The notes under the pieces are model-generated. The model made no database searches and was not told where the DNA came from. It saw nothing but the letters and a program-made list of their open reading frames with translations. Shown here one piece after another: positions 33,277 to 42,786 of a DNA stretch of 64,000 bases. Every line of letters starts with the position of its first letter. Position 1 is the stretch's first letter. The stretch lies in contig NZ_AP022583.1 of the NCBI RefSeq assembly GCF_010731635.1, forward strand, positions 1,550,001-1,614,000. Reading direction: 5' to 3'. Position numbers and translations under genes: made by a program. Source of the DNA: Mycobacterium noviomagense. GTDB lineage: Bacteria; Actinomycetota; Actinomycetes; Mycobacteriales; Mycobacteriaceae.

Positions 33277-33291
33277 TTGCTGAGGTCGGAG

Positions 33292-33374
33292 TCGAGTCTG
33301 CGTCCACTGCCTCGGTACTGCGTCCACAGTCAATCCAAGCCGAGGAACCTAGCCATGGCCGCAGAGTCGACGCT
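33292..33374. repeat. 83-bp intergenic repeat, left border of the inserted pst block
   Basis: The element starts TCGAGTCTGCGTCCACTGC and ends CGCAGAGTCGACGCT. It has the same length and orientation as the element at 42618-42700. The first 41 bases match at about 35 positions and the last 15 almost completely. The two ends are imperfect inverted repeats of each other (CGAGTCTGCG / CGCAGAGTCG). It lies 15 bases after the embC stop. Confidence 0.75.
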
Positions 33375-33441
33375 GTGACTGCACACTCGGCACTGCGAGT
33401 CGCACGACGAAACTCGCGAAAGCTTCACGCTCGGTGCGTCA

Positions 33442-34329
33442 TCAACCGGATTCGGAATGCCGCCGGAAAAACCAGGCGATCAGCCGGCCGACGACGATCA
33501 GCAGCAGCAGGTAGAGCAGCAGCAAGAAGGCTGCGTTGTACGAGAGGTCTTGAGCTGCCTTCGACGGCAGGTTGTAGAACGTCCAAATCGGATAGGTCAA
33601 GTATCCGACTGGTGAATTGGTCAGTTCTCCGGTCGGCGGAGAATCCGACCAGCCGGCCGTGTACAACATCGGCGCCGTCTCGCCGACAGCCAGGGCGAGC
33701 GCCACCAGCATGCCAGTGACAATTCCCGGCGCGGCAGACTTCAGCACGATCTTGCGCAGCGTCCAGCCAACGGGAAGCCCGAGCGCCTCTGCGCCTTCCC
33801 GGTACGACGTCGGCACCTGACGAAGCGCGGACTCGGTGGCCTTTGCGATGTACGGAATGGTCAGCACCGACAGCGTCACCACCCCGGCCGCCAGGGAAAA
33901 TCCCCAGTCGAAGTACACCACCAGCGCCAGATAGCCGACGTAGCCGAGCACGATCGACGGGATACCGGACAGCACCTCATACGCGCCCCGCAGAATTGAG
34001 CGCGTCCGCCCAACTGCGAACTCAGACAAGTAGATTCCGGTTAACACGCTCACAGTGCCGCCCACCAGCATGACGCCGGCACCAAGGACCACGGTGCCGA
34101 TGATCGCGTTGCGTAAACCGCCGCCGATGGACTGGCTATCCTGCACCAACACGCTCCAGTGGAACACCGGCACGGCACGGCTCACCACTCCGATCAGCAT
34201 CCACAATGTCGGAGCAACCACCACCGCCAGACAGCACAAACAGGCGCCCCAGAACAGCGCATTGACGAGCTTGCGGCGCTTGGCCACCGAGCGCCGCCGC
34301 GCAGTCGAGGACGCTGTCGGCGCGCTCAC
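33442..34329 (-). CDS. pstA: Phosphate ABC transporter permease PstA (PstA2-like)
   Basis: GTG 34329, one base past the pstC stop, gives 295 residues; a longer ATG frame to 34398 overlaps pstC. The protein has six membrane helices starting WGACLCCLAVVVAPTLWMLI. The permease EAA-loop region is SYREGAEALGLPVGWTLRKIVL, and a conserved VALALAVGETAPMLYTAG helix follows. It forms the channel of the high-affinity phosphate importer with PstC. It is the last gene of a four-gene minus-strand operon facing embC. Confidence 0.92.
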   Translation of the reverse strand: MSAPTASSTARRRSVAKRRKLVNALFWGACLCCLAVVVAPTLWMLIGVVSRAVPVFHWSVLVQDSQSIGGGLRNAIIGTVVLGAGVMLVGGTVSVLTGIYLSEFAVGRTRSILRGAYEVLSGIPSIVLGYVGYLALVVYFDWGFSLAAGVVTLSVLTIPYIAKATESALRQVPTSYREGAEALGLPVGWTLRKIVLKSAAPGIVTGMLVALALAVGETAPMLYTAGWSDSPPTGELTNSPVGYLTYPIWTFYNLPSKAAQDLSYNAAFLLLLYLLLLIVVGRLIAWFFRRHSESG

Positions 34330-34330
34330 C

Positions 34331-40680: not shown

Positions 40681-40709
40681 GAGACCGACAACCCACACAG
40701 GAGGGGTCA

Positions 40710-42608
40710 ATGACGACGCTGCGGTTGCGACGCCGAGCCGGGAGGGCACGCCCCCGTAGAGACAACCCGTTGCCGTTCGCGCCGCCGTGGCAGCCCAGGC
40801 CCGCTACCTACGGGGTCGGCGTAGAACACAACGTCGGGGTGCCGATGAGCGACGGGATTGTTCTGCGCGCCGACATTCACTACCCGACGGTGCCGGAGAC
40901 CGGGGCGGCCGCTACCGGGCCGTTCCCGGTGCTGCTGTCGGTGACGCCGTACGGCAAGAAGGCGCCGCCGCCGGCAGCGCAGATCGGCGGGGGTGCTACC
41001 CCGTACCTGATCAAGCGCGGCTACATCGAGGTGATGGTCGACGTCCGCGGTACCGGCGTCTCGGGGGGTTCCTTCGAGATGTTCGGGGAGCGCCAGGCCC
41101 AGGACGGGGTGGAGCTGGTCAAGTGGGCGTCGACGCTGCCGAACAGCAACGGCCGCGTCGGCATGTTCGGGGTTTCCTACCTGGCGATCAACCAGCTGTT
41201 CACTGCCGCCGCGGTGGGCCCGGATTCACCGCTGAAGGCCATCTTCCCGGTGATGGCGGCACGCGACTTCTACCGCGACGCCGCGACCATGGGCGGGGTG
41301 CCGCACCTGCGGACCGTGCGAGCCTACGGTGCCATCTACACGCTGCTGAACGTCCTCAACCCGGCCCTGGAATTCTTTGCGCCCGGCAAGCATCCGCGGC
41401 CGCGGGCCGGTGGGCTGGCCGCGGTGCGCCAGCGCGGCCGCGACCAACGCCGGTACTTCCGGCCGCTGATCGCCGAGGCCATGAACGGCGGCGACGCCGC
41501 ATACGACGAACCGTTCTGGGATGCGCTGCGGCCGGCGACCGTGCTTGCGCAGGTCGTCGGCAACGGTGTTGCGGTCTTCCTGGTCGGCGGCTGGCACGAC
41601 GCCTTCCAGCGAGGCACGCCGCTCAACTACGCCGCGCTGCAGAACGCCTTCGCCGGGCGGCCGGACGACGCGCCGATGGAACTCGGCCAGCCGGTGTCGG
41701 ATCGGGTGCGGTTGTTCATGGGGCCCTGGTACCACGTCACGAATTTCGACGGGCTGCACATCAACGCGCTGCAGTTGCGCTGGTTCGACCAGTGGCTGCA
41801 AGACGACGCAGACGCGGCGATCTCCGACCCGCCGTTCACCTTTCAGGCCATCGGATGCCCGCAATGGTTCCACGCCCGCGAATTCCCGCTCCCCGAAGCG
41901 ACGCCCACCCGGTTCTACCTGTCCGACGCCGGCCGTCTCAGCACTGACCGCTCCCCCGACCAAACGGTGGCGACCCTCGACTATGCGGCTCGCGGTCCGG
42001 TGGCGGGCCGAAGCCTCGAGCAGTGGACGCTGGGAATGAACAGCTTCTTCACCGCCCAGCGGGGTCGGCGCATCCGCTACGACACTGACAACAGGCGCCT
42101 GCAGCGCCGGGCGCTGACCTACACGACCGAACCGTTCACGTCGCCCACGCTGGTGGCCGGGCCGATCACGCTCACCGTCCACGCGACGGCCAACACCACC
42201 GAGACGGTGTGGGTTGCCCACCTCGACGACGTCGCGCCGGACGGAACCAGCCGCCCGCTGACGCAGGGCGCGCTGCTCGGTTCCCACCGTGCGCTGGACC
42301 CCGACCGCACCTGGTACCTGCCCGAGGGCACCGTGCTGCGACCGCATCACTACAGCACCCGTTCTGCGGCCGAACCCGTCGTTCCCGGCGAGCTGACCCG
42401 CTACGACGTCGAGATCTTCCCGACCGCTGCGTTTATCGCGCCGGAGCACCGGCTGCGGCTCATCGTGACCACGTACGACTTCCCACACCTGGTGCCCACC
42501 AAGCCCGCGCGTCGTGCCCTGGCCGGCGGACGTTACCAGCTCCACCAGGGCGGGCCGACGCCGTCGCACATCCTCATCCCGCTGGCCGATCCCGGCGCCT
42601 TCGGCTGA
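40710..42608 (+). CDS. CocE/NonD family X-Pro dipeptidyl-peptidase-like hydrolase
   Basis: The 632-residue product has an alpha/beta-hydrolase domain with oxyanion-helping Tyr (VTPYGKK), the nucleophile Ser156 in GMFGVSYLA, and a catalytic His in GPWYHVTNF. A helical cap and a C-terminal jelly-roll domain (PLTQGALLGSHRALDPDRTW) follow. Family members hydrolyse acyl esters such as cocaine or peptide X-Pro bonds; the substrate here is unknown. No secretion signal is obvious. An AGGAGGGG ribosome binding site precedes ATG 40710. It is the last gene of the inserted block. Confidence 0.9.
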   Translation: MTTLRLRRRAGRARPRRDNPLPFAPPWQPRPATYGVGVEHNVGVPMSDGIVLRADIHYPTVPETGAAATGPFPVLLSVTPYGKKAPPPAAQIGGGATPYLIKRGYIEVMVDVRGTGVSGGSFEMFGERQAQDGVELVKWASTLPNSNGRVGMFGVSYLAINQLFTAAAVGPDSPLKAIFPVMAARDFYRDAATMGGVPHLRTVRAYGAIYTLLNVLNPALEFFAPGKHPRPRAGGLAAVRQRGRDQRRYFRPLIAEAMNGGDAAYDEPFWDALRPATVLAQVVGNGVAVFLVGGWHDAFQRGTPLNYAALQNAFAGRPDDAPMELGQPVSDRVRLFMGPWYHVTNFDGLHINALQLRWFDQWLQDDADAAISDPPFTFQAIGCPQWFHAREFPLPEATPTRFYLSDAGRLSTDRSPDQTVATLDYAARGPVAGRSLEQWTLGMNSFFTAQRGRRIRYDTDNRRLQRRALTYTTEPFTSPTLVAGPITLTVHATANTTETVWVAHLDDVAPDGTSRPLTQGALLGSHRALDPDRTWYLPEGTVLRPHHYSTRSAAEPVVPGELTRYDVEIFPTAAFIAPEHRLRLIVTTYDFPHLVPTKPARRALAGGRYQLHQGGPTPSHILIPLADPGAFG

Positions 42609-42617
42609 ACCGCGACA

Positions 42618-42700
42618 TCGAGTCTGCGTCCACTGCGCCGATACTGCACCTACAGTCACGTCGCGTCGGAAAACCACGCTATGGGCGCAGAGTCGACGCT
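42618..42700. repeat. 83-bp intergenic repeat, right border of the inserted pst block
   Basis: The element starts TCGAGTCTGCGTCCACTGC and ends CGCAGAGTCGACGCT, the same ends, length and orientation as 33292-33374. A second partial end (ATGGGCGCAGAGTCGGCG) follows immediately at 42701-42718. It lies 9 bases after the hydrolase stop and upstream of embA. Confidence 0.75.
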
Positions 42701-42786
42701 ATGGGCGCAGAGTCGGCGTGGCCGGCCGTGTGTTGTCCCGCCCGCCGCGCGGGCGAAGCGAAAACCGTCGCATACCATCGACCCTC

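What the first reader, a model, noticed from the sequence alone, without database searches (positions are those of the whole stretch)
33277..42786. A complete pst phosphate-uptake and pknD locus sits inside the emb gene cluster
In M. tuberculosis embC, embA and embB are adjacent. Here pstA, pstC, pstS1, pstB (minus) and pstS2, pknD and a CocE-type hydrolase gene (plus) separate embC from embA by about 9.5 kb. Read in reverse, pknD-pstS2-pstB-pstS1-pstC-pstA is exactly the order of H37Rv Rv0931c-Rv0936, so a whole functional unit has been placed between two arabinan genes. It splits the emb transcript, gives embAB a separate promoter, and physically links phosphate sensing (PstS/PknD) with arabinan synthesis. 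A regulatory link is an inference.
Basis: partly seen in the sequence, partly recalled or inferred. Interest (0 to 1): 0.88.

Follow-up and report, generated by a model that had tools for sequence, protein, structure and literature searches.

The report
Phosphate-uptake genes parked between arabinan genes
In this mycobacterium a spare phosphate-uptake gene block really does sit between two cell-wall sugar genes, but that gap holds assorted genes in most relatives examined and the block also occurs at other chromosomal places, so this looks like ordinary gene shuffling rather than a new regulatory link.

Summary
In detail: 33277-42786 is exactly the embC-embA spacer of a one-contig mycobacterial genome and holds pstA2-pstC1-pstS1-pstB (minus) and pstS2-pknD-cocE (plus). 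The interpretation mostly fails. (1) A tight embC-embA join is the minority: 17 of 120 comparable genomes have a gap under 300 bp; other spacers hold unrelated genes (embR-like, PPE, MFS, prenyl synthases and more). (2) embAB did not gain a promoter: TAC(G/C)AT lies 8 nt before the embA start in 66 of 66 genomes examined, and in M. tuberculosis that box is a shown, embC-independent promoter. (3) The Rv0928-Rv0936-like site is not empty: it holds pstS3-pstC2-pstA1 and its own pknD and pstS2. The inserted block is a patchy module (34 of 396 genomes), with flanks near ctpC in 26 of 34 and at several other places in this clade. (4) The M. tuberculosis PstA2 system is reported neither phosphate-sensing nor phosphate-induced. 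New detail: both nearest genomes have cocE between embC and embA but no pst block. No other genome examined has this exact arrangement. A phosphate-arabinan regulatory link remains untested.

The parts
30007..33276 (+). embC, left neighbour (exact start uncertain; open frame runs from 28267)
   Evidence: PF04602 hit; 91% identical to G338 and G185
33292..33391 (+). hairpin-forming repeat copy 1, between embC and pstA2
   Evidence: 75% identical over 100 bp to the copy at 42618-42717; RNA fold z -2.15, 7 of 200 shuffles as stable
33442..34398 (-). pstA2, phosphate ABC permease
   Evidence: TIGR00974 204.1 bits, cut-off 193.45
34331..35395 (-). pstC1, phosphate ABC permease
   Evidence: TIGR02138 309.5 bits; matches at E<=1e-120 in 34 of 396 genomes, own included
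35395..36504 (-). pstS1, phosphate-binding lipoprotein
   Evidence: TIGR00975 372.2 bits; 1PC3
36518..37375 (-). pstB, ATPase
   Evidence: TIGR00972 340.2 bits, just below cut-off 343.2
37376..37562 (.). divergent intergenic region, presumed promoters of pstB and pstS2
   Evidence: gene positions; promoter role inferred; no sigma-70 consensus match in 33000-43000
37563..38654 (+). pstS2, phosphate-binding lipoprotein
   Evidence: TIGR00975 299.6 bits
38694..40646 (+). pknD, transmembrane Ser/Thr kinase with NHL propeller
   Evidence: Pkinase and NHL, motifs, 1RWI
40710..42608 (+). cocE/NonD-type hydrolase, also in the embC-embA gap of the two nearest genomes
   Evidence: TIGR00976 252.9 bits; 88% in G338 and G185 at the same place
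42618..42717 (+). hairpin-forming repeat copy 2, between cocE and embA
   Evidence: RNA fold z -4.50, 0 of 200 shuffles as stable
42773..42778 (+). TACCAT, embA promoter -10-like box, 8 nt before the GTG start
   Evidence: TACGAT or TACCAT, 8 nt, GTG in 26 of 26 and 40 of 40 genomes; functional in M. tuberculosis (PMC2885622)
42787..46065 (+). embA, right neighbour
   Evidence: PF04602 hit; 90-91% to G185 and G338
46062..49283 (+). embB, overlaps the embA stop

Best explanation
A relocated copy of a wandering pst module in a spacer that generally tolerates insertions. The embC-embA junction is open in most relatives examined, plausibly because embAB has its own promoter just before embA, so genes placed there do little harm. 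A cocE gene between embC and embA is shared with the two nearest genomes, so it probably came in their common ancestor. The clade's own PstA2-type block (pstB-pstS1-pstC1-pstA2 divergent from pstS2-pknD), elsewhere mostly found near ctpC, now lies between embC and cocE in this genome. Shown: the layout, the cocE order in the two nearest genomes, the block's absence from the usual site in this genome, the conserved embA box. Inferred: the direction and timing of the move (gain here, or older gain and clean loss in the two nearest genomes), ectopic recombination as the means, and that the block works as a plain second phosphate importer with no special effect on embAB.
For: Gap under 300 bp in 17 of 120 genomes. 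Varied cargo; embR-like gene in 5 of 15 (L084-L098), 0 of 15 (L101-L115, 13 genomes) and 22 of 40 (L167-L206) fetched emb loci. embA box 66 of 66. cocE in the gap of both nearest genomes, elsewhere in 8 of 8 of the other 11 relatives searched that have it (7 full-length, 1 part-length; 3 of 11 have none). Block in 34 of 396 genomes: flank genes of site A in 26, emb 1, mshC-PAC2 1, ligD-like 1, pstS3-C2-A1 site 2, another site shared by 2, unplaced 1. Site A and the mshC-PAC2 site lack the block in this genome (L131, L134). Block proteins cluster with clade members G378 (PstC1+PstB) or G082/G269 (PstS2), weakly.
Against: The trees disagree and have low support (55 for G000+G378; PknD groups with site-A genomes outside the clade without useful support), so transfer between species is not excluded. 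Two hairpin repeats flank the pst-pknD-cocE stretch and are absent from the emb loci of the two nearest genomes, which may mean a more specific mechanism than random recombination. The spacer census favours close relatives (126 of 396 genomes are in both best-row lists). No set of other genes was used as control for the embA box.
Confidence: 0.8

Rival explanations
1. Functional coupling: the insertion puts embAB under read-through or kinase control from the pst-pknD unit, so arabinan synthesis responds to phosphate.
For: pstS2, pknD, cocE, embA and embB all point the same way with gaps of 39, 63 and 178 bp before embA. In other species the same spacer holds EmbR-like regulators and in one case a Ser/Thr kinase beside one.
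Against: embA keeps its own promoter box; the M. tuberculosis promoter is reported constitutive in growth though lower in hypoxia; the PstA2 system there is not phosphate-sensing or phosphate-induced; a stable hairpin and one terminator-like match (42712-42726; 5 such matches in the region, 5.5 expected) lie between cocE and embA; the arrangement was seen in one genome only.
Confidence: 0.08
2. The block was acquired horizontally from another mycobacterium straight into the emb spacer, not moved from elsewhere in the same lineage.
For: Both nearest genomes lack the block; GC3 of the pst genes and pknD is lower than that of the emb genes (0.75-0.85 against 0.88-0.90); tree placement is unstable.
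Against: Three of the next relatives (G378, G082, G269) carry the block and give the closest PstC1 or PstS2; PstC1 is 87% identical to that of G378, against 88% for EmbC and 79% for EmbA; no plasmid record has a PstC1 match (E 1e-40).
Confidence: 0.1
3. Assembly error joining distant regions.
For: No reads available; the embC-pstA2 junction is seen in one assembly only.
Against: One contig; the cocE-embA join recurs in two other one-contig assemblies; the block's PstC1 is single here and the other pknD is only 68% identical, so it offers no repeat to mis-join.
Confidence: 0.02

Closest known systems
PstA2-type alternative Pst system with pstS2-pknD of M. tuberculosis (Rv0931c-Rv0936, order recalled)
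   Same: Same gene set and relative order; PstS1 and the PknD sensor match the solved M. tuberculosis proteins.
   Different: Sits between embC and cocE-embA instead of beside pstS3-pstC2-pstA1, which here keeps its own second pknD-pstS2.
embCAB cluster of M. tuberculosis and M. smegmatis
   Same: embC before embA-embB, same strand, same embA promoter-like box (PMC2885622 passages).
   Different: 9510 bp with seven genes between embC and embA instead of a short gap.
embR-embA-embB arrangement of M. avium (Belanger 1996, recalled; the paper is not held)
   Same: Extra genes directly upstream of embA; EmbR-like genes are common in this spacer.
   Different: Cargo here is pst-pknD-cocE, not embR.

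Membership tests
PstA2-type Pst/PknD module | pstB-pstS1-pstC1-pstA2 in one direction, divergent from pstS2-pknD | tested here: met
PstA2-type Pst/PknD module | transports phosphate | not testable with these tools
   needs an uptake assay; family matches only
PstA1-type, phosphate-sensing Pst coupled to SenX3-RegX3 | block genes are the PstS3-PstC2-PstA1 type | tested here: not met
   own PstC2 and PstA1 are 30-33% identical to the block's PstC1 and PstA2 and lie at 1.076-1.079 Mb
contiguous embCAB cluster | embC followed at once by embA | tested here: not met
   9510 bp spacer
contiguous embCAB cluster | promoter directly upstream of embA | tested here: met
   TACCAT 8 nt before GTG, conserved 66 of 66; sequence only, activity here not measured
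mobile genetic element | transposase or integrase inside the block | tested here: not met
   no such family in the seven genes; an IS30-family gene lies after embB, outside
mobile genetic element | known plasmid carriage | tested here: not met
   no PstC1 match at E 1e-40 in 72,556 plasmid records

The most novel reading that the evidence does not exclude
The embC-embA spacer is a recurrent docking place for arabinan regulators (EmbR-like FHA proteins in 27 of 70 fetched emb loci other than the window, a Ser/Thr kinase beside one of them), and in this lineage the PstS2-PknD pair has taken that place, so that a kinase that may sense phosphate acts in cis on EmbA/EmbB expression or phosphorylation, with read-through pstS2-pknD-cocE-embAB.
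Probability: 0.07. Interest if true: 0.75.

Novelty: new variant of a known kind. Interest (0 to 1): 0.33.

Why it matters
It corrects an M. tuberculosis-centred picture: tight embC-embA spacing is the minority among the relatives examined, and the junction is a mosaic next to a conserved embA promoter box. It also shows the PstA2-type phosphate module as a unit found at several places within one clade, which cautions against reading regulation from neighbourhood. If read-through into embAB were found, it would give a natural case of phosphate-dependent arabinan synthesis.

Tried and rejected
Looked for an empty Rv0928-Rv0936-like site: not empty. Looked for a transposon or plasmid carrier: none in the block, no plasmid match for PstC1; CocE only at 44% in one Embleya record. 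Asked whether cocE travels with the pst block: none of the 79 pknD loci shows a cocE hit. Tried to date the move by trees: inconclusive; G338 and G185 are each other's nearest (96%) with this genome outside, so gain here and loss in their ancestor are equally short. Sigma-70 scan of the region: nothing; terminator scan: no more than chance. Paper searches for emb spacer synteny (0 papers; 1 paper, not relevant by its listing), for embR/embA neighbourhood and for the PstA2-pknD module listed none whose title or abstract describes this arrangement; only open-licence papers are held and most were seen as listings. Papers: PMC2885622 by passages, abstract passage included; PMC4996455 by abstract and passages; PMC13141992, PMC2640153 and PMC5932416 by passages only and not used as evidence; Belanger 1996 and Sharma 2006 not held, recalled or known only through citations.

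Full report
What is there. The window is bases 1550001-1614000 of a one-contig genome of 4,779,798 bases. It holds pstA2, pstC1, pstS1 and pstB on the minus strand and pstS2, pknD and a CocE/NonD hydrolase on the plus strand, all open and with clear family matches. PstB falls 3 bits under one curated cut-off and 88 under another. PknD has its catalytic motifs and propeller.

How unusual is a split emb cluster? I took embA and embC positions from searches of 396 genomes of the genus (each lists its 150 best rows). 126 genomes are in both lists; 120 have both genes on one contig and 6 on different contigs. The gap is under 300 bp in 17 of 120, 300-1000 bp in 13, 1-2.5 kb in 47, 2.5-5 kb in 27, 5-9 kb in 10, 9-20 kb in 4 (this genome 9510 bp) and 72-73 kb in 2. 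Genomes in only one list were dropped, and the lists favour closer relatives. The cargo differs: EmbR-like BTAD-FHA regulators, a maleylpyruvate-isomerase-like gene, PPE genes, prenyl synthases, MFS transporters, NUDIX, multicopper oxidase, MMPL, DUF222, amylase-like, EspC- and EspA/EspE-family genes, and once a Ser/Thr kinase together with an EmbR-like gene. An EmbR-like gene was found in 5 of 15, 0 of 15 and 22 of 40 fetched emb loci, and not in the window.

Why the spacer may tolerate this. Directly before embA every genome looked at keeps TAC(G/C)AT, then 8 nt, then GTG: 26 of 26 and 40 of 40 other genomes, rechecked for spacing and place. The window has TACCAT at 42773-42778. I used no set of other genes as control; in the window the same pattern with a start codon occurs at one other place, 30005, at the embC start. 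The M. tuberculosis embA promoter has been shown to lie immediately upstream of the gene, with a TACCAT -10 box, to act independently of embC, and to be constitutive in growth though lower in hypoxia (PMC2885622, passages). So embAB very probably was already separately promoted; the insertion did not create that.

Where the pst block belongs. This genome has a second pknD, 68% identical, at 1.079 Mb, in pstS3-pstC2-pstA1 facing pknD-pstS2. That is the Rv0928-Rv0932c-like arrangement (recalled), and it is in place. pstB-pstS1-pstC1-pstA2 are missing there, but so they are at that site in 7 of 9 relatives fetched (missing in G378, G116, G398, G070, G093, G406, G185; present in G337 and G026), so this is no scar of a recent move. 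Two more distant genomes, G016 and G022, have only a 46-47% PstB nearby. Matching PstC1 over 396 genomes finds the block in 34. In 26 of these the fetched stretch shows flank genes of one conserved site A: ctpC, an Rv3272-like CoA-transferase or its methyltransferase neighbour, and in many a CHASE3 histidine kinase with a SpoIIE regulator on the other side; LCP and rmlD follow ctpC where reached. In four of the 26 the order differs, the block lying between ctpC and the CoA-transferase. The Rv names are recalled. The other eight: emb (this genome), mshC-PAC2 (G378; these two gene names are recalled from the protein sequences), a ligD-like gene (G300), the pstS3-C2-A1 site (G337, G026), another site shared on one side by G082 and G269, each with a second pstB-S1-C1-A2 set, and one at a contig end (G381). 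Six of the eight (G000, G378, G300, G337, G082, G269) fall in one group of 14 in the emb tree of 18 genomes (support 61), so the block has been restless in this clade. In this genome neither site A (L131) nor mshC-PAC2 (L134) holds it.

Order of events. The nearest genomes are G338 and G185 (EmbA and EmbC 90-92%). Both have cocE (88%) between embC and embA, 41 and 55 bp after the embC stop, and no pst there. Neither has a PstC1 match, and their best full-length PknD matches are 50-51%; at the pstS3 site G185 has a pknD in two pieces, 94% and 83% to this genome's copy there. Among the other 11 relatives searched, cocE lies elsewhere in 8 and is missing in 3. So cocE in the spacer is shared by three genomes; the pst block is seen in one. 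G338 and G185 are nearest each other (96%) to the exclusion of this genome, so a gain here and a loss in their ancestor cannot be told apart. A tree of PstC1+PstB joins the block to G378 (support 55) and one of PstS2 to G082 and G269 within a group that also has two site-A genomes; PknD goes elsewhere without useful support. These fit an origin within the clade or genus but do not prove it.

Junction anatomy. Two 100-bp direct repeats, 75% alike, lie between embC and pstA2 and between cocE and embA; both can fold into long hairpins (z -2.15 and -4.50), and neither is in the emb loci of G338 and G185. They may have come with the rearrangement or later; they may also damp read-through into embA. 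This is inference.

Function. The likely role of the block is a second high-affinity phosphate importer with a linked kinase. In M. tuberculosis the PstA2 system was reported not needed for gene regulation in phosphate-replete growth, and its operon not induced by phosphate limitation, unlike the PstA1 system (PMC4996455, abstract and passages). That speaks against 'phosphate sensing next to arabinan synthesis', though PknD's own signal was not examined here. A read-through transcript pstS2-pknD-cocE-embAB is geometrically possible and untested.

Verdict. Real and, as an exact arrangement, seen only in this genome among those examined; but a gene-order variant with ordinary causes. No mechanism beyond relocation into a permissive spacer is supported.

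Noticed in passing
window 49371-50756: IS30-family transposase gene directly after embB.
   Followed up: no
window about 38630-38680: Short tandem duplication covering the end and stop of pstS2, just before pknD (read).
   Followed up: no
window 33292-33391, 42618-42717, and a weaker copy near 10217: Hairpin-forming repeats in intergenic stretches, absent from the emb loci of the two nearest genomes.
   Followed up: partly
window 30005-30021: The same TACCAT, 8 nt, GTG pattern as at embA occurs in frame near the presumed embC start; embC may have a similar promoter.
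   Followed up: no
L112, L113 (G082) and L114, L115 (G269): In these two relatives embC and embAB are 72-73 kb apart.
   Followed up: partly
L128 (G185) 9505-11441 and 13362-16229: In a near relative the pknD at the pstS3 site is in two pieces and pstS3 is interrupted by about 1.7 kb.
   Followed up: no
L137 (G082), L138 (G269): A second pstB-pstS1-pstC1-pstA2 set with no pknD hit near it; the two sets of G269 sit at zero distance in the PstC1+PstB tree.
   Followed up: no
L095 (G187) 6365-11174: An EmbR-like gene and a Ser/Thr kinase gene together in the embC-embA spacer, reminiscent of the embR-pknH pair of M. tuberculosis (recalled).
   Followed up: no
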